DNA from: JBBIVP01 sp037439705 [NCBI: bacterium]
Lineage (GTDB): Bacteria > JBBIVP01
DNA length: 14,811 nucleotides
Direction: 5' to 3'
Assembly (NCBI GenBank): GCA_037439705.1
Contig: JBBIVP010000005.1
Location: forward strand, 13,248 to 28,058
Shown: in pieces, positions 1 through 12,840 of the stretch
How positions within the stretch are numbered: position 1 is the stretch's first letter
Layout: each line of letters opens with the position of its first letter
Notes under the pieces: generated by a model
Told to the model about the DNA's origin: nothing
Databases searched by the model: none
What the model saw: only the letters and a program-made list of their open reading frames with translations
Program-made: the position numbers and the translations under genes

Positions 1-272
1 GAGGCGAGGTAATTGATATTAATTCAGAAATAGCTGAATCCCCTGATATCCTCAATGATGACCCGGAATCCAAAGATAACTGGTTAATAGAAATTGAGCT
101 CTCTGACCCATCAGAACTTGACTTTCTCCTTGGCGAAGAATCATACGAACAACTGATTGAAGAAGAAGGCGAGGAACTAGAAGAAGAACTGGAAGAGGAG
201 GAATTTGAAGAAGAATTTGAAGAAGAATTTGAAGAGGAACTTGAAGAAGAGCCAGAAGACGAAGAAGAATAA
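1..272 (+). CDS. gcvH: Glycine cleavage system H protein, C-terminal part, with acidic tail (5' end outside window)
   Basis: The reading frame enters from the left edge (first full codon at 3) and stops at TAA 270-272. The visible start, GEVIDINSEIAESPDILND followed by a WLIEIELSDPSEL segment and LLGEESYEQLIEEE, matches the C-terminal half of GcvH. This small protein carries lipoate and shuttles the aminomethyl group between the P, T and L proteins of glycine cleavage. The lipoyl-lysine hairpin lies upstream of the window and cannot be checked. Family members normally end about where LIEEE occurs. Here roughly 33 more residues follow, almost all Glu with periodic Phe or Leu. The next gene, dapL, begins directly after the stop codon (taaATG), so the two are co-translated. 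Identification as a GcvH-fold protein is secure. Whether it serves glycine cleavage or lipoate relay cannot be told here. Confidence 0.88.
   Translation, partial: GEVIDINSEIAESPDILNDDPESKDNWLIEIELSDPSELDFLLGEESYEQLIEEEGEELEEELEEEEFEEEFEEEFEEELEEEPEDEEE
201..248 (+). repeat. 12-bp tandem repeat encoding EFEE units in the GcvH tail
   Basis: Four consecutive 12-bp units (GAATTTGAAGAA at 201 and 213, GAATTTGAAGAG at 225, GAACTTGAAGAA at 237) encode EFEE-EFEE-EFEE-ELEE. The first two copies are identical and the others differ by one base each. The low-complexity, in-frame structure suggests replication slippage, so copy number could vary between strains without breaking the frame. Confidence 0.85.
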
Positions 273-1430
273 ATGGATGTCTCGGAAAAATTAAAGAAAC
301 TCCCTCCTTACCTTTTTGCTGACCTTGACAGAAAAAAAGAAGAGGTTAGAAAAAGAGGGATAGATGTTATAAGTCTTGGAATAGGCGACCCTGACATTCC
401 TACTCCTGAAGAAATAATTGAAGCATTATATGAAGCAGTATGTGATCCGGTTAACCACAGATATCCCTCTTACGAAGGAATGCTCCTTTTGAGAGAAAAG
501 TTTGCTGAATGGTTCAAAAAAAGATTTGGTGTCCGTTTAGACCCTGAAAAAGAGATAATTACACTCATTGGAAGCAAAGAGGGAATTGCACATCTTCCCC
601 TTGGAATTGTTAACAAAGAAGAATTCGTTCTCATTCCTGACCCGGGATATCCTGTTTACTATGCATCCACAATTTTTGCCGATGGCATTCCGTTTTTCAT
701 ACCCCTTCTTAAAACCAACAACTTTATTCCCGATTTATCATCCATTCCGGAAGAAGTGGTAAAAAAAACAAAACTTATGTTCATAAATTATCCTAACAAT
801 CCAACTTCAGCCATAGCCCATTTGTCCTTTTTCAAGGAAGTAATAGAATTTGCTCAAAAAAATGGAATAATAGTTGCTTCAGATGCTGCCTATTCTGAAA
901 TCTTCTGGAATGAAAAACCTCACAGCATACTTGAAGTGGATGGTGCTAAAGAATGTGCTATAGAATTTCATTCACTTTCAAAAACATTCAACATGACCGG
1001 ATGGAGGATAGGTTTTGCGGTAGGGAATAAAAATGTTGTGAATGCACTTTTAAAGGTAAAAACAAATGTGGATTCCGGAGTATTTCAAGCAATTCAATAT
1101 GCAGGAATAAAGGCTCTTGAAATTTATGATAAAATATCACAGCAAAATCGGGAGATATACAAAAAGAGGAGGGAGAAGTTTTTAAGGGGAATTGAGAAAG
1201 TTGGTTTAAAAGCACATCTCTCAGACGCTACTTTTTATGTATGGATTGAATGCCCGAAAGGGGTTTCATCCATGGAAATGGCAGAAAAATGCCTTGAAAA
1301 AGGAGTAGTTCTTACCCCAGGAGTTGGATTTGGAAAATATGGTGAAGGATTTGTGAGAGCTGCTTTAACTGTGTCCGAAGAAAAAATTGAGGAAGCCTAT
1401 GAAAGGATAAAGGAAGTTTTCAACACTTGA
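273..1430 (+). CDS. dapL: LL-diaminopimelate aminotransferase
   Basis: This is a PLP-dependent fold-type I aminotransferase of 385 residues that converts tetrahydrodipicolinate plus glutamate directly to LL-diaminopimelate, bypassing the succinyl and acetyl branches of lysine and peptidoglycan precursor synthesis. Visible signatures are SLGIGDPDIPTP (34-45), NHRYPSYEG (61-69), NYPNNPT (172-178), SDAAYSEI (203-210) and the PLP-lysine motif SLSKTFNMTGWRIGF with Lys237 and Arg245. GSKEGIAHLPLG and the DSGVFQAIQ stretch fit the DapL group better than aspartate aminotransferase. The ATG directly follows the gcvH stop. The GA-rich acidic-tail codons upstream are the only candidate ribosome-binding sequence. 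The 3' end overlaps folK. A related aminotransferase specificity remains possible, but dapL is the best call. Confidence 0.88.
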   Translation: MDVSEKLKKLPPYLFADLDRKKEEVRKRGIDVISLGIGDPDIPTPEEIIEALYEAVCDPVNHRYPSYEGMLLLREKFAEWFKKRFGVRLDPEKEIITLIGSKEGIAHLPLGIVNKEEFVLIPDPGYPVYYASTIFADGIPFFIPLLKTNNFIPDLSSIPEEVVKKTKLMFINYPNNPTSAIAHLSFFKEVIEFAQKNGIIVASDAAYSEIFWNEKPHSILEVDGAKECAIEFHSLSKTFNMTGWRIGFAVGNKNVVNALLKVKTNVDSGVFQAIQYAGIKALEIYDKISQQNREIYKKRREKFLRGIEKVGLKAHLSDATFYVWIECPKGVSSMEMAEKCLEKGVVLTPGVGFGKYGEGFVRAALTVSEEKIEEAYERIKEVFNT

Positions 1431-1948
1431 AAGAAGTATACCTCCTTTTAGGGTCAAACAAAGGAAACCGTTTAGAAAATATAATTTCTGCTATTCTATA
1501 TTTAAAAAAAATTGACCCGGAAAAATTGAAGGTTCTGGAATTGTCATCCATTTATGAAACACAACCTGAGGGAATAAATTATATTCAGCCTGCCTACCTC
1601 AATATAGTCATTAAATGTATGACCACTTATCAACCCCTTGAACTCCTTGATGTTGTGGAATCTATTGAAAAAACTCTTGGAAGAAAAAACAAGGGAAAAA
1701 AAATGCCAAGAACAATTGACATAGACATCCTACTTTTCGGAGATATGATATTAAATACCCCCAGGTTAAAAATTCCCCACCCCCAGATATTAGAAAGAAG
1801 TTTTGTCCCCCATATTCTATGTGAACTCTCAGAAACTCTCCTCCATCCTGAATGCGGAAAAAAAATGATAGATATAGTTACGGAAAGAAAAGAAAAACCC
1901 CCTTCAATTTATTTGAAAAAAGAGAAATTAGAAACCCTTGTTTTATAA
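1427..1948 (+). CDS. folK: 2-amino-4-hydroxy-6-hydroxymethyldihydropteridine pyrophosphokinase
   Basis: This cytoplasmic folate-pathway enzyme transfers pyrophosphate from ATP to 6-hydroxymethyl-dihydropterin. Family signatures are LGSNKGNR (residues 8-15), YETQPEG (43-49), the magnesium/ATP motif PRTIDIDILLFGD (94-106) and IPHPQILERSFV (116-127). At 173 residues it is slightly longer than usual, the surplus being a charged C-terminal tail. The start is TTG at 1427, overlapping the dapL stop as TTGA. AAGGA about 12 nt upstream is a distant Shine-Dalgarno. The last 40 bp overlap, tail-to-tail, the coding end of the glycoside hydrolase on the opposite strand. Confidence 0.93.
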   Translation: MKEVYLLLGSNKGNRLENIISAILYLKKIDPEKLKVLELSSIYETQPEGINYIQPAYLNIVIKCMTTYQPLELLDVVESIEKTLGRKNKGKKMPRTIDIDILLFGDMILNTPRLKIPHPQILERSFVPHILCELSETLLHPECGKKMIDIVTERKEKPPSIYLKKEKLETLVL

Positions 1949-3789
1949 TAATGAATTATCCATAAAACAACTGCAATCAAAATCCATGAAAAAGAACTCT
2001 TCCCCTCGTTGCATCCACATCCTTTCAAAACCTTCCCTTTATATTTCAACTTAACCGCAATATCTCCTTTAAAAGGAATGACCTTTATCTTTGCAACCCC
2101 TTCTTTCACAACGAGATTTTCTCTCTCAACAATTCTTCCATCTTTTGTATCCCAGAATTCAAGAGAATACTCACCGTCAATCAATCCTTCTACATTCACA
2201 TTCAACTCAGTTCTTTCATGCGGAAAATTAGTTTTATCCCATTCACTGCTTTTATCGTGAATCCACAAAAGCGCTCCTGATTTTGACTTAATCCCCAGGA
2301 CTTCTACAGGAGAAAAATTAAATTTGCCAACTCCTTCATAGAAAAACTCCCTGTAATCGGTAAAACTCTCTCCCTTAACAAACTCAGAAATTCCCTTTAG
2401 GTGATACCAGAGGTTATTGGGTTCAATGTAATCATACCACCACCATGACATGGCAGTTCCTGCATTTCCTGAAAGGATGGATGCCCATACACCATTATGA
2501 ATGTTCACTCCATAAGGGTCATGGAGATTAAATGATGGCAACCAGTAAATACCGAACTCTCCTGCGAATGTTGGTTTATTGAATTTCCTCAAAGCCTCTG
2601 CTGACCTTACCATCTGTTCCGAAATTCCGAATACAGGGGCGAGATAAGCATGATATTGGGTGTAATCGAGCCCTTCCAGGTCCCAGAATTGATGCTCATC
2701 AAGAAAGTATGGGCTGGTGAAAGAAGTGGTTATAAGATGAGAATGAACATCCCATTTCCTTATCTTTCTAATTTTGTCAATATGCCAGTTCTTTATAACA
2801 TCTCTATTCCTGTAATAACCGATTATACCGTCAACTTCATTAAAGAGTTCCCAGGCAAGGAGATTGGGAGAGTACCCCCATCTTGCAATTATGTATCTCA
2901 ACCTTTTATCAAAAAAAGCATTTGCTTCATGGGATGAAAAAAACTCTATGGAAGAACTTAACATACCCCCATTTTTTATATTGAACGGATTCTCATTCCA
3001 TGAAGACCATATGGAGGTTTCAAAAGCAGTATGATAAAGAAGAACTAACTGGATATAAATGCCGAGAGATTCAGCCTTTTCAAATATTCTGTCAATTCTG
3101 TTCGCTGCTTCAAGACTATAAAATCCAAGTCCATGATAAATTCCTGATGGATGGGTTGAATTCCATTCTATTGTCTGCCCCTGAAAATAATGGGACATCC
3201 AGATTCTTGCATAGTTTCCACCTGCATTATGGAGTTTTTCAAGGAAATAATCGTAATAAAAACTTCCCGTATCATCTGATGTCCATGCGATGTTAAAACC
3301 TACTGGTATGTAAGGCTCACCATTATCAAAAGAGAAATAAAAGGGATTTTCTTTATTCACCCTTACAAAACCCTTATTATCTGGGGAAAGGCTTTCAAAT
3401 GCCATCTCATCTGTCTGAAACACACCTGAATGGTCTATTACCTTTATAAAAAATCTGTAGGTTCCTGTTTCAAAGGGTGTAAACCTTATTGCCCAGTAGG
3501 GAGCACCAAGGGGTTTAAATCGTTCAACTCCGGATTCTAAATACCTTTCAAAATCCTGGGTGTAAAAGGCTGGAACAAATAATGTAGTTCCTGAAGGAGT
3601 AATTATTTCAGCACCTGCATCAACCTCATCCGGGTCAAATGGATTAAGATATTCTTCTTCAATGTCAAATCTCACCTCAAATTTTTCAAATTTATGAACT
3701 GAAGGAGGAAATGATATGTTTTTTATCTTTTCTGAAGAAAAAATGGAAAGCAAAACAAAAATGTAACACTTTAATTCTCCGCCCATCAA
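1909..3789 (-). CDS. Secreted glycoside hydrolase (DUF5060-like domain plus GH5-like TIM barrel) with MYXO-CTERM-like C-terminal anchor
   Basis: This is an exported polysaccharide hydrolase of 626 residues. Residues 1-19 form a short signal peptide. Residues 25-135 resemble the beta-sandwich DUF5060 domain that precedes cellulase-like catalytic domains. The barrel runs from about 150 to 475 and contains FNIAWTSDD, NYARIWMSHYF, LLAWELFNEVDG (acid/base Glu318) and KPTFAGEFGIYW (nucleophile Glu411), the clan GH-A pattern. A beta domain follows (about 490-585). The protein then ends in GCGC (590-593), a hydrophobic helix (about 601-613) and KTR plus a short tail, a tripartite sorting signal of MYXO-CTERM style. 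The substrate is unknown but probably beta-linked. GGAAGG lies 6 nt before the TTG at 3789; the adjacent ATG at 3786 is an equally good start. It lies 26 bp downstream of the metallopeptidase gene and is probably co-transcribed. Confidence 0.82.
   Translation of the reverse strand: MMGGELKCYIFVLLSIFSSEKIKNISFPPSVHKFEKFEVRFDIEEEYLNPFDPDEVDAGAEIITPSGTTLFVPAFYTQDFERYLESGVERFKPLGAPYWAIRFTPFETGTYRFFIKVIDHSGVFQTDEMAFESLSPDNKGFVRVNKENPFYFSFDNGEPYIPVGFNIAWTSDDTGSFYYDYFLEKLHNAGGNYARIWMSHYFQGQTIEWNSTHPSGIYHGLGFYSLEAANRIDRIFEKAESLGIYIQLVLLYHTAFETSIWSSWNENPFNIKNGGMLSSSIEFFSSHEANAFFDKRLRYIIARWGYSPNLLAWELFNEVDGIIGYYRNRDVIKNWHIDKIRKIRKWDVHSHLITTSFTSPYFLDEHQFWDLEGLDYTQYHAYLAPVFGISEQMVRSAEALRKFNKPTFAGEFGIYWLPSFNLHDPYGVNIHNGVWASILSGNAGTAMSWWWYDYIEPNNLWYHLKGISEFVKGESFTDYREFFYEGVGKFNFSPVEVLGIKSKSGALLWIHDKSSEWDKTNFPHERTELNVNVEGLIDGEYSLEFWDTKDGRIVERENLVVKEGVAKIKVIPFKGDIAVKLKYKGKVLKGCGCNEGKSSFSWILIAVVLWIIHYYKTRVSNFSFFK
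1938..1970. terminator. AT-rich hairpin at the convergent folK / hydrolase ends (possible bidirectional terminator)
   Basis: TTGTTTTAT (1938-1946) pairs perfectly with ATAAAACAA (1962-1970). Inside it ATAAT (1948-1952) pairs with ATTAT (1955-1959), giving a long, nearly symmetric stem that contains the folK stop codon. Its position between converging genes suits a two-way terminator. Against this, the stem is AT-only apart from one pair, no clear U-tract follows on the + strand, and on the - strand it lies inside the hydrolase coding sequence. Confidence 0.3.
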
Positions 3790-3815: not shown

Positions 3816-4874
3816 TCATGGGGTTTGAGGAATAAATATCCCTTTTGTCTTGTAATTTTCGGCTAATGCTGAGACAAGGGAAATGAGCTCAATCATCTTC
3901 TTTTCCAGTTCCCTTTTTCTTACATAAAGCCCTATCTCATCCCCCCTTACTGCAAATTTCTTAAGAATGTCTGAAATTACTTCCTTTTTGACATCTGTGG
4001 CTTTTGAAATCCTCTCCGTCAGAAGTCTCTTTTCATTTTTTATCACTTCTGAAAGGAGTATATAAAGTTTTTCTTTCTTTGGATTTTTTGAAAAAATTTT
4101 GAGCAAATAAGGGTCAATATAGCCTGTAGCCTTCTTTATATATTTCTTTGGTGAAAGATTGAAAAATTTATAAAGCTGAATGTTGAACTCCTCTACCGGC
4201 TTCACTTTTATAGAAGGGTCATTTTCAACAACAGGAGGTTTTCTTTTAAGCTTTTTGATAATATTCTCTGTCCATTCAAGCTTCACCATTGCACCCGGTT
4301 TAAATCTGTAAACCTTTCTCCACTTTCTACCAAGGAGCATCACAGTTGCAAATGTTTCTGCAAAATCATCATCAGGATGCTTCTGGGCATAGTGGTCTCC
4401 TGTAAGATTTACATACTCCCTGCTCCATGGCTTCTTTTTAAAATAATCCTTTGATGGATAGGTATTAAAAAAATGTCCTTTCACGTTGAATATTCTTCTG
4501 AAAGGTCGGGCTCTGTAGAGTTTATAAAGATAACAAAATGCATGACCCACTTCGTGCCATATTACAGCAGGAAGTTCATCAATGGAAAAGAGCGTTTTTC
4601 CTGCTTCTATACAGAGTTCCCTTATTAATTTATTGGTGTCCCAGAACGGAACTGAAATATTGGATGTACCCATGCAACAAGAATACTCCACCCCAAGGTA
4701 AAAATTCGGTCTTATCACAAACCCCATCTCCTCCATTTTTTCCTTCACAGACTTTATAACTCCTTGAAGGGGTTCACCGTTCAAACTTACAGGGAGTCGG
4801 GAAATCGGGGTGGTAAGAAGTTCCGCCTTTTTCGTATTCTCTTCATAAAAAAGCAAAAACTCTGATGCTCTCAT
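3816..4874 (-). CDS. Putative zinc metallopeptidase (HEVGH)
   Basis: This 352-residue protein has no signal peptide and so is probably cytoplasmic. IWHEVGHAF (105-113) supplies the HExxH zinc motif. About 55 residues later DHYAQKHPDDDFAETFATVML (160-180) has the HP-x-x-DFAETFA arrangement seen in gluzincin-like 'putative zinc-binding metallopeptidase' families, where the Glu or Asp would be the third zinc ligand. The C-terminal half (about 210-352) is Lys/Glu-rich, mostly helical by composition, and unrecognised. The start is ATG at 4874. No Shine-Dalgarno precedes it, and a promoter-like -10 lies only 8 nt upstream. The target is unknown. Pairing with a secreted glycosidase does not by itself define a role. 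The peptidase fold is fairly secure and the function is not. Confidence 0.75.
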   Translation of the reverse strand: MRASEFLLFYEENTKKAELLTTPISRLPVSLNGEPLQGVIKSVKEKMEEMGFVIRPNFYLGVEYSCCMGTSNISVPFWDTNKLIRELCIEAGKTLFSIDELPAVIWHEVGHAFCYLYKLYRARPFRRIFNVKGHFFNTYPSKDYFKKKPWSREYVNLTGDHYAQKHPDDDFAETFATVMLLGRKWRKVYRFKPGAMVKLEWTENIIKKLKRKPPVVENDPSIKVKPVEEFNIQLYKFFNLSPKKYIKKATGYIDPYLLKIFSKNPKKEKLYILLSEVIKNEKRLLTERISKATDVKKEVISDILKKFAVRGDEIGLYVRKRELEKKMIELISLVSALAENYKTKGIFIPQTP

Positions 4875-4956: not shown

Positions 4957-6371
4957 CTATCCTTTCTGAATGGATTCAAGAAGAAGGTAGGGCATTCCTT
5001 CCATATCTCCTGAAGACATAAAAATTACTACATCGCCCTCTTTAAGGGAATTCTTTATTTTTAATATATCCCTGTATCCATCAAGAGGATAAGCAATTTT
5101 TCCATTCATTTTTAATGAAGTTACAATAAAATCTTCAGAAATTGCTTCATCATTTTTGAGATTTGATTTTCCATAGGCAGGAAGTAAAAAAATTATATCA
5201 GCGTTTTGAAAAGATGAAATATATTCTTTTTCAAAAACTTTTTTTCTTGAAGAATGGGTTCTTGGCTCAAATACACATACAATCCTGCTTTCAGGAAAAG
5301 TCATTCTGAAGGCTTTTATTGTCTCAAGAACTGCAGTAGGGTGGTGGGCAAAATCATCATAGATTTTTATCCCCTTCGCCTCTCCAACAAACTCCTGACC
5401 CCCTTAAATTCTTCCATTGCTGAAACTACCCTGTTCAAATCCAGTCCAAGAAGGGCAGCCACCGCAATGACTGCTGAAAAATTTGATGCATTATGCATTC
5501 CAATCAAATATCTGTTTTTAACCACAATTCTCCCATTTGGCGTTTCAAAAATAAATTCACCGTTTTTAACTTCCACTGGTTTATAAAGACTCTCCTCCCC
5601 CCTTCCAAACCACAAAACATCCCTCCCTGACCTTCTTACCATATCCTTTAAATGTTCCCATTCAGAAGAACAGAGAATTTTTGTAGAAGAATTTCTGGTT
5701 ATAAGTTCAAGAAAGGTTCCTTTAAGATGGTTTATGTCCTTATAAATGTCTGCATGATCAAACTCAAGAGAGTTGATGAGCAAGATCTCTGGTGAAAAGT
5801 GAAAAAACTTTGGCTTTTTGTCAAAGAATGAGGTTTCATACTCATCTCCTTCCACAGCATAAAATTCCTCTCCGATAGAGAAAGACCTGTTTGTATTTTT
5901 AAGAATTCCACCGACAAAGAAACCTGCGGAAAGCCCCAGTTCCTTAAGCATCCATCCAATTGCAGAAGAAACAGTGGTTTTTCCGTGGGTTCCTGTTACG
6001 AGAATTACCCTTTTATTCTTTAAAAAAAAATTATTGAGTGCCTCGGGCATTGAAGTATATGGCTTACCACTTTCAATTATATGCCTTGCCTCTTCATTCG
6101 TTGAGGAAATGGAATTTCCTATTACATAGCAATCAAAATTTTCAGGTACATTTTCTTTTGAATAACCCCTTTTTAAAGGGATTTTTAGTTCGTTCAATAA
6201 GTCTGAGGCTGGAGGAAAAAATGCTTTATCAGAGCCTTCAACATGCCAGCCCGACTCTTTAAACATACCGGCCAGAGCGCTCATTCCTATTCCACATATT
6301 CCGACCAAATAAACTTTTTTTGTTGATTTTTTATCTACCAAATTATAGTTTTCTTCCTGTTGCTCTAACAA
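4957..6371 (-). pseudogene. mpl: UDP-N-acetylmuramate:L-alanyl-gamma-D-glutamyl-meso-diaminopimelate ligase, frameshifted
   Basis: Mpl reattaches the recycled murein tripeptide to UDP-MurNAc in the cytoplasm. The first part (6371 to 5367) shows YLVGICGIGMSALAG (21-35), the ATP loop VTGTHGKTTVSSA (125-137), AVEGDEYETSFFDKKPKF (172-189) and SLEFDHADIY (201-210), diagnostic for Mpl over MurC. It runs into TAA at 5367 just after EEFKGV. The missing remainder continues in another frame, open from 5403: QEFVGEAKGIKIYDDFAHHPT, then CVFEPRTHSSRKKVF, ending at 4957. The join lacks the Lys/Arg-Arg-Arg expected between GV and QE, so a short deletion explains both defects. TTG at 6371 has no Shine-Dalgarno. 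A second TTG at 6341, just past the DAHP synthase stop and about 12 nt after AGGAAG, may be the true start. A sequencing or assembly error remains possible. Confidence 0.85.
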
Positions 6372-8999: not shown

Positions 9000-9052
9000 A
9001 ATTCTGATTAAAAAAACATGTCAAAAAGTTTTATTTTTCTAAAATCAGAATT
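9000..9052 (-). terminator. Inverted repeat around the GH13 stop codon (possible terminator or 3' end hairpin)
   Basis: AATTCTGATT (9000-9009) and AATCAGAATT (9043-9052) are perfect 10-bp inverted arms. The right arm encodes the last residues of the GH13 gene, and the 33-nt loop holds its stop codon. On the - strand the second arm is followed by only a short T run, so it is not a textbook intrinsic terminator. The remainder of 8917-9030 holds the rpsT promoter and nothing else I can recognise. Confidence 0.3.
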
Positions 9053-10650
9053 CGCCTCTGGTTCACTGGCATATATATTGAATAGGAGGTAAAGTTTTCC
9101 TCTGTGAGTGCTAAAACTTTTTCATCGTTAAAGGCATCAAGGACCTCTCCCCTTTTCTTCTCCCACGGAGTTCCCGTGAGGTCAATTTTTATTATTTTAT
9201 CAAAAAATGAAAGGTTTAAAATGACAAGAACCCAATCGTCCTCTTCACCTCTGAAATATGCAAAGACACCGTTATCTTTTGTATCAACTGAAATATATCC
9301 CCTTTTTCTTAAAGGCTGGATGGCGTTTCTCGTCCTTATCAATTTTCTGTAAAAATTGTAAAGAGAGGACGGGGCTTTCCTTTCTGATTCAACATTTTTG
9401 ATTTTATAGTTTCCTGAAGGAGGAATCCAGGGCTTTTTAGAACTGAAACCTGCATTTTCCTTATCATTCCATTGCATCGGCGTTCTTGCGATATCCCTCC
9501 AGTCAACAACCACATCCTTTCCGTTATTTATTCCTATTTCTTCCCCATAATAAACAAATGGGGTGCTCGGGAGCGTCATCTGGAGGAAAGCCAGATTTTT
9601 TGCCCTTTCATCATTTTCCCCCATTATAGAATAGGACCTTGGTATGTCGTGATTTCCTATAACAATTCCCTGCCATCCTCCTTCTGGAAACGAAAGAAAT
9701 GTCTCATGAAGAACATTATCAACAAACTCCTTTCCGCCAAAAAGAGCGGAGGAATAAAGGGCATATGTCAGAATAAAGTTGAAAATCATGTGAAGTTCAT
9801 CATTTCCAGTATATCTATTTATCTGGGATGGCAATCCCCACACTTCCCCTATCATCGCCCTTCCTTCATATTCATCAAAAACCCTTCTCATTTTTTTAAG
9901 AAATTCATGGGTTTCATTTCTGTGGACGCAGAGGTTATTTAATAGGTCCTCAAAATAGGAATCAGCCACATCAAGCCTGAAACCATCAACTCCCTTCTCA
10001 AGCCAGAACCTCACCACATCAATTATTGCGTTTTGAACATCCTCATTCCAAAAGTTCAAATCAGGCTGTTCCTTCAAGAACCTGTGAAAGTAATAGTGAT
10101 CAGTTTTTTGATGGTATGTCCACCTTTCTCCTCCAAATGTTCCCGGCATGACAATTATGTCATTACAGTTGAAATAAGGAGAATCCGACCAGACATACCA
10201 GTTCCTCTTGGGATTTTCTCTATTACTTCTTGATTCAAGAAACCATGGGTGCTGGTCAGATGTATGATTGAATACTCCGTCAAGAAATATCTTTATGTTC
10301 CTCCTGTGAGCCTCATAAAGAAGATCCTCAAAGTCCTTCATATCTCCGTAATCGGGATTAATCCCGTAGTAATCAGCGATATCATATCCTGAGTCCTTGT
10401 AAGGGGAAGGGTAAATCGGATTCAGCCATATCCCTCCGATTCCGAGGTCCTCAAGGTAGTCAAGTCTTTCTATTATTCCCCTCAAATCACCAATTCCATC
10501 CCCATCCGAATCCATGAAACTTCTCGGAAATATCTGATAAAAAACCACTTCCTTGAACCATTCCGGAAGTCCTGAGGGTGCTTTTTTGTCAAATTTCTTT
10601 TCTTCTGCACAGGAAAGGAAAATAACCAATAAAAACAGAAATCTCTTCAT
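9031..10650 (-). CDS. GH13 alpha-glucosidase-type lipoprotein (oligo-1,6-glucosidase / alpha-amylase family)
   Basis: This exported glycoside hydrolase of 539 residues acts on alpha-glucans or their oligosaccharides. MKRFLFLLVIFLSC is a lipoprotein signal peptide with acylated Cys14. The barrel then shows VVFYQIFPRSF (35-45), calcium-site DSDGDGIGDLRG (47-58), conserved region I DGVFNHT (124-130), QPDLNF (195-200, region V of the oligo-1,6-glucosidase subfamily), II DGFRLDVAD (nucleophile Asp227), III GEVW (acid/base Glu269) and IV GNHDIPR (transition-state Asp335). A C-terminal beta domain closes it. All three catalytic residues are present. The frame is open to 10680, but the ATG at 10650 gives the signal peptide and sits one base after the upstream stop (TGAAATG). 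Substrate size and linkage preference cannot be fixed from sequence. Confidence 0.9.
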   Translation of the reverse strand: MKRFLFLLVIFLSCAEEKKFDKKAPSGLPEWFKEVVFYQIFPRSFMDSDGDGIGDLRGIIERLDYLEDLGIGGIWLNPIYPSPYKDSGYDIADYYGINPDYGDMKDFEDLLYEAHRRNIKIFLDGVFNHTSDQHPWFLESRSNRENPKRNWYVWSDSPYFNCNDIIVMPGTFGGERWTYHQKTDHYYFHRFLKEQPDLNFWNEDVQNAIIDVVRFWLEKGVDGFRLDVADSYFEDLLNNLCVHRNETHEFLKKMRRVFDEYEGRAMIGEVWGLPSQINRYTGNDELHMIFNFILTYALYSSALFGGKEFVDNVLHETFLSFPEGGWQGIVIGNHDIPRSYSIMGENDERAKNLAFLQMTLPSTPFVYYGEEIGINNGKDVVVDWRDIARTPMQWNDKENAGFSSKKPWIPPSGNYKIKNVESERKAPSSLYNFYRKLIRTRNAIQPLRKRGYISVDTKDNGVFAYFRGEEDDWVLVILNLSFFDKIIKIDLTGTPWEKKRGEVLDAFNDEKVLALTEENFTSYSIYMPVNQRRILILEK

Positions 10651-10651
10651 T

Positions 10652-11743
10652 TCAATAATCCGAAAGATAGTGCACCTCAATTATCTCTTTATCTGCTGAA
10701 GCGAAAGCAAAAATGAAATCATCAGGAGGAATGGGAATAGCAGAAATCCACAATCCATTGAATCCCTTTGATTCAAGCCTTTTGAACCTCCAGAATTTTT
10801 CAAATTTTGATACAAAAACCACAGACCCATAACTTCCATCAAAGGCGAATATGGAAAGTGACCCATCAATCAAAAATGGATGCGAAAAAATTCCAAACCC
10901 TCCCCTTTTCAATGGATATTCGGGAGAAGACCAGACACCGTCATTCATAAGAATTCCGAGACAGCTTACATCCGGATGGCTATTATAAAAGGTTATGCCA
11001 AACAAATTTCCCTCCTGAAATGGCTTCATCCACTGGGCAATAAATTTCTTTGTGGAAGGGAGGAGTTTAAAAATGGTTGATGTATTCTTTATTTTTAATT
11101 CCATATCAAGAAGTGTTCCATCAAGGGTTCCTGATTCAAGATTTGTATAAAGAAGATGAACATCATTGCCAGATATAATAATAGTTGATGATACCCCGTT
11201 CAAAAGATTTTCTTCCTGAAGATTTTGATGTATCACCCCTTCTTTAACAGGGACATAATTTTTCCCTTTTACCAGCCACAACTTCCATCTCTTTTTGTCC
11301 TGAGAGATAAAATAATAAGATGTTATCAATTCTCCGGAAACATTTATTGCACTTATTCCAGCTGCATAACCTCCATCCTCTGAATGAAGAACATTTACTC
11401 CGTTTCTGAACGAGTAAACTCCATTTCCATTTGTGAAAACTATTAATGGTTCATCTGCTGAAATGAGAACGGATTCCATCCTTCCTGATGTGCTCTCCGC
11501 TATTGATTTCATTCCCCATGAGCCATCCCTTTTTGCCCCTGCAAATGTAAGATTCTTATTTAAATGGTCAAAAAATGTAAAAGCTGGCAATCCATCTTTT
11601 TTCAGGCTCAGAGAAATGGCTTCTCCCTTTCTATTTATAATCCTCTGGAAGTTCGGTTTTGAGGAAGTGCTCTTACAAACCTCCTGGGAAGCGATTGAGA
11701 ATGGCAGGAATAATAAAAAAACGCTCAAAAATTTAAACCTCAC
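10652..11743 (-). CDS. Secreted beta-propeller-like protein, function unknown
   Basis: This 363-residue protein is not recognised as a named family. MRFKFLSVFLLFLPFSIAS is a classical signal peptide (cleavage near SIAS|QEV). The mature part is beta-rich, with repeating segments such as GLPAFTFFDHLNKNLTFAGA followed by GSWGMKSIAES, the same Asp-x-x-x-x-x-Leu-x-x-Ala ... Trp pattern seen in the preceding lipoprotein. It also has repeated Trp/Phe-Gly turns, suggesting a propeller of about five to seven blades; later repeats are degenerate. The start is GTG at 11743, overlapping the upstream stop (GTGA). It lies directly before the GH13 lipoprotein gene, so a binding or presentation role in glycan handling is plausible but unproven. 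Confidence 0.7.
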   Translation of the reverse strand: MRFKFLSVFLLFLPFSIASQEVCKSTSSKPNFQRIINRKGEAISLSLKKDGLPAFTFFDHLNKNLTFAGAKRDGSWGMKSIAESTSGRMESVLISADEPLIVFTNGNGVYSFRNGVNVLHSEDGGYAAGISAINVSGELITSYYFISQDKKRWKLWLVKGKNYVPVKEGVIHQNLQEENLLNGVSSTIIISGNDVHLLYTNLESGTLDGTLLDMELKIKNTSTIFKLLPSTKKFIAQWMKPFQEGNLFGITFYNSHPDVSCLGILMNDGVWSSPEYPLKRGGFGIFSHPFLIDGSLSIFAFDGSYGSVVFVSKFEKFWRFKRLESKGFNGLWISAIPIPPDDFIFAFASADKEIIEVHYLSDY

Positions 11744-12840
11744 TGAAAAACCTCCATATTTTCCTCAGCAAATCTGACCTCCCTGTTCAATCTGTCCGAA
11801 ATGACCAGCCCCAATTTTTCAGAATATATTTTTGCATCAAACTCTGATACGAGAACAGGACAGTTATCTTCCCTCGTTTGAGAAATTTGAAAAATCTTCC
11901 AGTTTCCTTTTTTCCTCCTTGCCATCCTTATGCTTGCATCTTCAACATCAAAATATAGAATGACAGGCTCTCCCTCTTCATCCTCAAGAAGAATGGGAAA
12001 TTTGCCCACATTCAAATCAGAAGTATCAACACTTTCTATCTTCCAGTTTTCTTTTTTTTCTGCAAAAATAAGGTTTCTCACGTTCATATCGTAATAGGCA
12101 ATACGAATACAATCGCAGGATGATGAATAGAATATGGAATTAAATCTTCCCCTGTCAGAATTACCATCCACCACTTCTACATTCCACCCGCTTTTATCTT
12201 CCTTTAACCATGCATGTTTTAAAACACCGTGAAATCCTTCATAATAGGAGATGTGGGGAATCATTTTTTTATCCAGGGTAATTGATGTGGCTGAAAAAAC
12301 CTCTCCTCCTCCAACAAGTTCATAATATCCTGGATCAACGGTCTCCCTCAAAATCTCTCCGAGATAAACCCTCGCATATATAAGGTCCAGACCTGAAAGG
12401 TTCACATAGGAAAAATTTAATCCACCATCCCTGTCCTCTACCATATCTGAACAAGCCCCTGTATCTCCCTCAGCATCAATTAGTGTAGAAATCCAGCCAC
12501 CTGCAGTCTTTCTGAACATAGTAAGATTCCCCATATCATAACCTGTAAATGCAAAATTTTCTGTTGATGTCCATATTGCCTTTCCAATTTCAAGAACCGG
12601 ATAGGAAATTCCAATTTTTGATACCATCCATTCATTTCCTCTTAAAATTCCAAATTCAGCCTGAGCAATTTCTTCGTTAACAAACACAACCGCTGGTTCT
12701 CCGTCTCTGTTAAACGCCAATTTCGGAGATGATGACAGAACATCCCTTTTTATAACATTCGTGGAAACAGCAACAGGAATAACTTTTTCTTCGCCGCATC
12801 CCAACAGAAAAAGAAAAATTATGGAAAATGTCCTTTTCAC
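11740..12840 (-). CDS. Beta-propeller-like lipoprotein, function unknown
   Basis: This is a 366-residue lipoprotein. MKRTFSIIFLFLLGC carries a clear lipobox (LLGC, Cys15). The mature chain contains several 45-55-residue repeats. The best-preserved are PHISYYEGFHGVLKHAW...WNVEVVDG, IRIAYYDMNVRNLIFAE...WKIESVD and PVILYFDVEDASIRMAR...WKIFQIS. Each repeat has strands of the form IxYYDxxxxxLxxA, then Trp-x-x-x-x-Val, typical of propeller blades related to sialidase/BNR-like proteins. No catalytic signature is visible. A SCDC pair near residue 240 may form a disulfide. The start is GTG at 12840, with a promoter-like -10 ending 7 nt upstream and no Shine-Dalgarno. It is the first gene of a three-gene unit leading to the GH13 lipoprotein, suggesting a surface complex. 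Confidence 0.75.
   Translation of the reverse strand: MKRTFSIIFLFLLGCGEEKVIPVAVSTNVIKRDVLSSSPKLAFNRDGEPAVVFVNEEIAQAEFGILRGNEWMVSKIGISYPVLEIGKAIWTSTENFAFTGYDMGNLTMFRKTAGGWISTLIDAEGDTGACSDMVEDRDGGLNFSYVNLSGLDLIYARVYLGEILRETVDPGYYELVGGGEVFSATSITLDKKMIPHISYYEGFHGVLKHAWLKEDKSGWNVEVVDGNSDRGRFNSIFYSSSCDCIRIAYYDMNVRNLIFAEKKENWKIESVDTSDLNVGKFPILLEDEEGEPVILYFDVEDASIRMARRKKGNWKIFQISQTREDNCPVLVSEFDAKIYSEKLGLVISDRLNREVRFAEENMEVFQ

What the first reader, a model, noticed from the sequence alone, without database searches (positions are those of the whole stretch)
1909..2030. MYXO-CTERM-like Cys-Gly-Cys sorting signal on a DUF5060/GH5-like hydrolase
The protein ends GCGC, then a polar linker, a hydrophobic helix and a basic KTR cluster. 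This tripartite layout matches C-terminal sorting signals of the MYXO-CTERM type, in which a Cys is thought to be processed by a CPBP-family intramembrane protease (myxosortase). A short, odd extension (VSNFSFFK) follows the basic cluster and is encoded in the overlap with folK. If other proteins of this genome share GCGC-helix-basic ends, the lineage has its own surface-sorting system.
Basis: partly seen in the sequence, partly recalled or inferred. Interest (0 to 1): 0.62.

Follow-up and report, generated by a model that had tools for sequence, protein, structure and literature searches.

The report
Cysteine-tagged membrane tail on sugar-cutting enzyme
A secreted sugar-cutting enzyme from an unplaced bacterium ends in an extra tail (a Cys-Gly-Cys pair, a membrane helix and a few positive charges) that resembles the tags which fix proteins to the surface of myxobacteria, but whether this bacterium has the matching machinery could not be tested.

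Summary
The DUF5060/GH5-like hydrolase (1909-3786, minus strand) ends in GCGC, a short polar linker, a 15-17-residue hydrophobic stretch and K-T-R. The tail (residues 586-626) is an appendix: the conserved enzyme ends at about residue 583-585, and 0 of 64 distant homologous frames that reach a stop codon carry a C-terminal membrane helix or close Cys pair. The mature chain is otherwise cysteine-free. The layout is unlikely by chance: 14 of 400,000 random C-termini pass a rule that the known tag TraA also passes. The first tail Cys lies 25 residues before the Lys and 27 before the Arg of KTR; in TraA the Cys-Arg distance is 27.

Membership in MYXO-CTERM is not shown. The curated model TIGR03901 does not report the tail, while the TraA control scores over its cut-off. 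No genome is held for the window and its lineage could not be placed, so the decisive test (other such tails, a CPBP protease) could not be run. Best reading: a Cys-type C-terminal sorting signal that works like MYXO-CTERM, in a variant the curated model misses. Main rival: a plain C-terminal membrane anchor.

The parts
1909..3786 (-). DUF5060 + GH5-like glycoside hydrolase with N-terminal signal-peptide-like segment and C-terminal tail
   Evidence: ORF, Pfam, solved homologue 9gmj over residues 32-585, E 4.8e-87; ATG start inferred from Shine-Dalgarno-like site
2011..2022 (-). GCGC signature (G590-C593); its two cysteines are the only ones besides Cys8 in the signal-peptide-like segment
   Evidence: sequence; Cys positions 8, 591, 593
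1945..1995 (-). hydrophobic stretch SFSWILIAVVLWIIHYY (S599-Y615, predicted membrane helix)
   Evidence: Kyte-Doolittle mean up to 2.29 over 15 and 1.95 over 16 residues starting at S598; no dedicated TM predictor was available
1936..1944 (-). basic K-T-R after the helix
   Evidence: sequence; Lys and Arg 25 and 27 residues after the first tail Cys, Arg 27 after it in TraA
1912..1935 (-). terminal extension VSNFSFFK, inside the overlap with folK
   Evidence: sequence
1427..1948 (+). folK, convergent, overlapping the last 40 bases of the hydrolase gene
   Evidence: TIGR01498 111.2 bits, cut-off 54.1
3816..4874 (-). gene directly upstream on the same strand: HExxH protein weakly similar to Peptidase_Mx; possibly co-transcribed, role in the tail not shown
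   Evidence: Pfam PF15887 23.6 bits, under its cut-off of 27; 29-base gap to the ATG

Best explanation
The tail is a Cys-type C-terminal sorting signal that works like MYXO-CTERM. The enzyme is exported by Sec (inferred). The C-terminal helix holds it in the inner membrane with KTR on the cytoplasmic side (inferred). One of the two tail cysteines is lipidated and an intramembrane CPBP protease removes the helix, leaving the hydrolase lipid-anchored at the cell surface (inferred by analogy with MrtX/TraA). Shown here: an appended tripartite module, absent from the distant homologues seen, on a hydrolase whose mature chain has no other cysteine. Not shown: lipidation, cleavage, the protease, or any second substrate.
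For: Layout and coordinates. The enzyme domain ends at about 583-585: a solved homologue aligns over 32-585, and of 35 homologues aligned to residue 575 or beyond, 26 end within 10 residues of the alignment's end. 0 of 64 homologous frames that reach a stop have a C-terminal helix or a close Cys pair. Cysteines only at 8, 591 and 593, against about 6.4 expected in residues 21-585. Chance 14 of 400,000 with a rule that TraA passes in full and that 4 of 4 PEP-CTERM tails tried pass on helix and basic end. Cys-to-basic spacing 25-27, TraA 27. In the MrtX work the Cys are needed for cleavage, the motif is described as generic GCGC, and hydrolases are among the predicted clients.
Against: No NCBIfam model reports the tail, while TraA scores 20.6 bits on TIGR03901, cut-off 20. 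(Pfam reports neither the tail nor TraA, so it says nothing.) Only two basic residues follow the helix, then VSNFSFFK. The helix is short. No second tail among the window's other genes, which include three exported-looking proteins. No protease gene of the CPBP kind recognised in the window. Lineage unknown.
Confidence: 0.52

Rival explanations
1. A plain C-terminal membrane anchor: the helix stays in place and tethers the enzyme to the inner (or only) membrane. The Cys pair is incidental, or binds metal or forms a disulphide.
For: Helix plus basic end without any Cys motif is common enough: 8 of 322 ORFs in fetched loci pass helix + basic end, none of them with a Cys before the helix. No sorting model reports the tail. 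Weak basic cluster.
Against: Both cysteines of an otherwise Cys-free mature chain sit just before the helix, at the spacing of TraA.
Confidence: 0.3
2. Artefact: an indel in the draft sequence, or a lost stop codon, makes the reading frame run on past the true end of the enzyme.
For: Homologues end at about residue 583-585; the other two frames have stops at about the same place; the same contig has a frame change in the mpl gene.
Against: Reading random DNA to its stop gives Cys pair + helix + basic end in 2 of 300,000 cases and helix + basic end in 195 of 300,000.
Confidence: 0.08
3. A sorting tag of another kind (exosortase, rhombosortase or archaeosortase type), with the Cys pair not the processed site.
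For: Same tripartite plan as PEP-CTERM and GlyGly-CTERM.
Against: No PEP signature in the tail; no PEP-CTERM or GlyGly-CTERM model reported.
Confidence: 0.1

Closest known systems
MYXO-CTERM (TIGR03901) and its protease myxosortase MrtX (NF040593)
   Same: Cys signature just before a C-terminal helix with basic end; GCGC is the generic motif (PMC11980579); Cys-to-Arg distance 27 in TraA and here; exported hydrolases are among the predicted clients.
   Different: Not reported by the model; K-T-R instead of an Arg cluster; eight further residues after it; Ile/Val/Trp helix where TraA has Leu/Ala; lineage not placed; MrtX could not be sought because no genome is held.
JDVT-CTERM / MrtJ (and, recalled only, Synerg-CTERM / MrtS and CGP-CTERM / MrtA)
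   Same: Other sorting signals with an invariant Cys paired with CPBP proteases (JDVT; the other two recalled from a paper that is not in the library).
   Different: No NCBIfam model of this kind was reported for the tail; I did not check separately that each of them is in that library.
DUF5060 / GH5-like enzymes, solved example 9gmj
   Same: Same family over residues 32-585; two glutamates that I take for the GH5 catalytic pair align (WELFNEVDG with WEFWNEVDI, AGEFG with VGEFG; their role is recalled).
   Different: The solved chain has no tail (568 residues, alignment to 565); it may be a trimmed construct, which was not checked.

Membership tests
MYXO-CTERM (TIGR03901) | score over the curated cut-off of 20 bits | tested here: not met
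   No report at E<=10 for the whole protein or for the tail alone; TraA control 20.6 bits. HMMER filters may hide weak scores.
MYXO-CTERM (TIGR03901) | signature with invariant Cys, then helix, at the extreme C-terminus | tested here: met
   GCGC 590-593, hydrophobic 599-615 of 626
MYXO-CTERM (TIGR03901) | Arg-rich cytoplasmic cluster | tested here: inconclusive
   K616, R618, K626 only
MYXO-CTERM (TIGR03901) | N-terminal signal peptide | tested here: inconclusive
   MGGELKCYIFVLLSIFSSEK looks like one by eye; no predictor available
MYXO-CTERM (TIGR03901) | several to dozens of tagged proteins in one genome | not testable with these tools
   no genome held; 0 of 16 other window genes has a helix + basic end
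MYXO-CTERM (TIGR03901) | cognate CPBP protease (MrtX and kin) in the genome | not testable with these tools
   no genome held
MYXO-CTERM (TIGR03901) | host in the phylum Myxococcota | not testable with these tools
   none of the ten contigs reached is titled as a myxobacterium, so no Myxococcota genome could be searched; best DAHP synthase identity 62% in G217 (phylum of G003) and 59% in G105 (phylum of G010)
PEP-CTERM (TIGR02595) | PEP signature before the helix | tested here: not met
   no PEP in the tail; no model reported
GH5-like hydrolase with DUF5060 | DUF5060 over cut-off and glutamates of the GH5 motifs aligned with a solved member | tested here: met
   PF16586 36 bits against 27.2; alignment. 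PF00150 is 23.4 against a cut-off of 23.5, just under.

The most novel reading that the evidence does not exclude
A low-GC bacterial lineage outside Myxococcota has its own Cys-type C-terminal surface-sorting system, with a GCGC-helix-Lys/Arg signal too different in composition for TIGR03901 and its own CPBP protease, used to display polysaccharide-degrading enzymes.
Probability: 0.3. Interest if true: 0.55.

Novelty: new variant of a known kind. Interest (0 to 1): 0.36.

Why it matters
MYXO-CTERM is described as a tag specific to myxobacteria, and the enzyme thought to lipidate its Cys is unidentified. A low-GC user of the same trick in another lineage would widen the reach of CPBP sorting proteases and give a second place to look for the acyltransferase. 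On one protein from one contig it is only a lead.

Tried and rejected
Whole-genome search for other tails and for CPBP proteases: not possible, no genome held. Finding relatives with the hydrolase: none in genome contigs or viral contigs; in plasmids four records at 22-26% identity, C-termini not looked at. With DAHP synthase in genome contigs: 10 loci, 32-59% identity over the best segment. Placing the lineage: DAHP best 62% (G217) among 198 genomes of the phylum of G003 and 59% (G105) among 199 of the phylum of G010. LL-DAP aminotransferase was sought in 20 chosen genomes: 54-59% in five small ones of the former phylum, next best 52% in G008. Gene order in the stretches fetched from those five: in one (L096, G241) a Mur-ligase-like match of 28% identity follows DAHP synthase on the same strand, 444 bases on, as mpl does in the window; in L089 dapL, an amylase-family match and DAHP lie within 15 kb; otherwise no shared neighbours were seen. 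Too little to place the window. TIGR03901 gave 0 matches in those five genomes, which says little since kinship is unproven. TIGR03901 in the first ten genomes: matches in 6 of 10, one over the cut-off. Of the ten matches held as loci, eight are PEP-CTERM ends without Cys and two (L014, L016) lie inside longer proteins (one search had read the four minus-strand ones on the wrong strand). Weak matches also occur in 6 of 14 (E<=1) and 7 of 14 (E<=10) control genomes, none over the cut-off. Fold prediction from the single sequence was poor (mean pLDDT 37.2); no fold search was made with it. Literature: 'DUF5060' gave one paper, on vaginal Lactobacillus (listing only); '9GMJ' none; 'Synerg-CTERM' none; 'JDVT-CTERM' only the MrtX paper. 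My first helix rule missed TraA and one of four PEP-CTERM tails, so I repeated the homologue check and the chance estimate with a laxer rule.

Full report
What is there. The minus-strand gene 1909-3786 encodes a 625-residue protein (626 if counted from the TTG at 3789; numbers below use that count). It starts with a signal-peptide-like segment (MGGELKCYIFVLLSIFSSEK, judged by eye), followed by DUF5060 (Pfam E 8.7e-9) and a GH5-like catalytic region (PF00150, 23.4 bits, cut-off 23.5). A solved protein of the same type, 9gmj, aligns over residues 32-585 at E 4.8e-87, with the NE and GEFG glutamates in place (their catalytic role in GH5 is recalled). The last 41 residues are KVLKGCGCNEGKSSFSWILIAVVLWIIHYYKTRVSNFSFFK. 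Two corrections: KTR as well as VSNFSFFK lies in the 40-base overlap with folK, and the basic cluster is thin.

The tail is an added module. I searched the hydrolase in six samples of whole genomes: 149, 198, 39, 246, 299 and 247 genomes, of which 1, 8, 2, 41, 5 and 6 had a match at the thresholds used (E 1e-5 for the first three, 1e-20 for the next two, 1e-30 for the last). 68 matches were held as loci; one search listed many more matches but gave loci for only 30. All 68 loci gave a homologous frame and 64 of these frames reach a stop codon. In none of the 64 do the last 60 residues hold a membrane-helix-like stretch or two close cysteines, also with a laxer helix rule. Some of the 64 frames may be shifted or broken before their true end (for instance L034 and L073, whose alignments stop at residues 320 and 511). 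The safer set is the 35 whose alignment reaches residue 575 or beyond: 26 end within 10 residues after it, and the nine others have longer extensions without a helix. All homologues are distant (20-38% identity, 25-38% in the 35), so they cannot tell when the tail was gained or whether close relatives share it. Single-sequence fold prediction was poor overall; only a C-terminal beta region (about 530-585) was moderately confident, and confidence fell from residue 588 of the 625.

Is it more than chance. With residues drawn from the window's own proteins, 1,279 of 400,000 random C-termini had a helix with a basic end and 8 of 400,000 also a close Cys pair. With the laxer rule, which TraA passes in full and four PEP-CTERM tails pass on helix and basic end, the figures were 1,562 and 14 of 400,000. 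For random DNA read to its stop, 195 and 2 of 300,000. Among 322 ORFs of the fetched loci 8 had helix and basic end, none of them with a Cys before the helix. The rules were written after seeing the tail. The chain has three cysteines, at 8, 591 and 593; residues 21-585 have none, where about 6.4 would be expected from the window's average (P about 0.0016 on a simple binomial; exported proteins are often poor in Cys, so this overstates it).

How it most likely works. MrtX of Myxococcus xanthus cleaves MYXO-CTERM proteins in a Cys-dependent way; lipidation of the Cys before cleavage is proposed, not shown. Clients then reach the surface by type II secretion (PMC11980579: abstract, introduction, section 7, part 1 of 2 of the discussion and passages seen; of PMC3325183 only passages). 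The generic motif is given there as GCGC. In TraA the first Cys precedes the first Arg by 27 residues; here the first tail Cys precedes K616 by 25 and R618 by 27. I therefore take the tail for a Cys-type sorting signal (0.52). A plain anchor remains a serious rival (0.30), since the basic end is weak and nothing shows processing.

Membership. TIGR03901 does not report the tail, nor does any other NCBIfam model, while the TraA control is found at 20.6 bits, over the cut-off of 20. Pfam reports neither the tail nor TraA. HMMER's filters drop weak scores, and I infer that the model leans to Leu/Ala/Arg-rich tails of GC-rich genomes, so a low-GC variant could fail it. The model also fires on PEP-CTERM ends in other genomes: eight of the ten matches that I could read. 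The tail is not filed as MYXO-CTERM. 'Works like' is kept apart from 'is'.

What could not be done. The window (38% GC) has no held genome, no close relative was found, and its phylum is unknown. If the contig proves to come from a low-GC member of Myxococcota, the finding becomes an ordinary, diverged member of a known system.

Artefact check. The same contig carries a frame change in mpl, near the end of its first part at 5367, so indels are possible. The other two frames of the hydrolase have stops close to the conserved enzyme end, so an indel there could in principle have exposed the tail. The random-DNA control makes it unlikely that an accidental read-through looks like this.

Noticed in passing
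window 3-269 (+): C-terminal part of a glycine cleavage H protein (GCV_H, E 4.2e-10) followed by an extremely acidic tail of about 35 residues, almost all Glu/Asp with a few Leu, Phe and Pro (read), just before dapL.
   Followed up: no
window 4957-6371 (-): mpl/murC-like ligase is split: the N-terminal frame ends at 5367 and the rest continues in another frame. Sequencing error or a broken gene.
   Followed up: partly
window 3816-4874 (-): HExxH protein weakly like Peptidase_Mx (23.6 bits, under cut-off), no NCBIfam match, 29 bases upstream of the hydrolase; possible operon partner.
   Followed up: no
window 9031-12840 (-): An alpha-amylase-family protein and two proteins with no Pfam or NCBIfam match at the thresholds used overlap head to tail; two of the three start with lipoprotein-like signals (by eye), so N-terminal lipoproteins seem to coexist with the tail.
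   Followed up: no
L048: The closest homologue found (38-40% identity, G403) has its own C-terminal extension of 78 residues, whose last part is very rich in Asp, Glu and Tyr, in place of a membrane tail.
   Followed up: no
L083, L084, L087-L096: Five small genomes (1.3-1.8 Mb, fetched stretches 29-40% GC) in the phylum of G003 hold the closest dapL matches of 20 genomes searched (54-59%) and the top five DAHP synthase matches of that phylum's sample (59-62%); in L096 a Mur-ligase-like gene follows DAHP synthase as in the window. Possibly distant kin of the window, or only similar composition.
   Followed up: partly
L011, L012, L013, L015, L017, L018, L019, L020: MYXO-CTERM model TIGR03901 cross-matches PEP-CTERM ends in genomes reached through Planctomycetota contigs.
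   Followed up: yes
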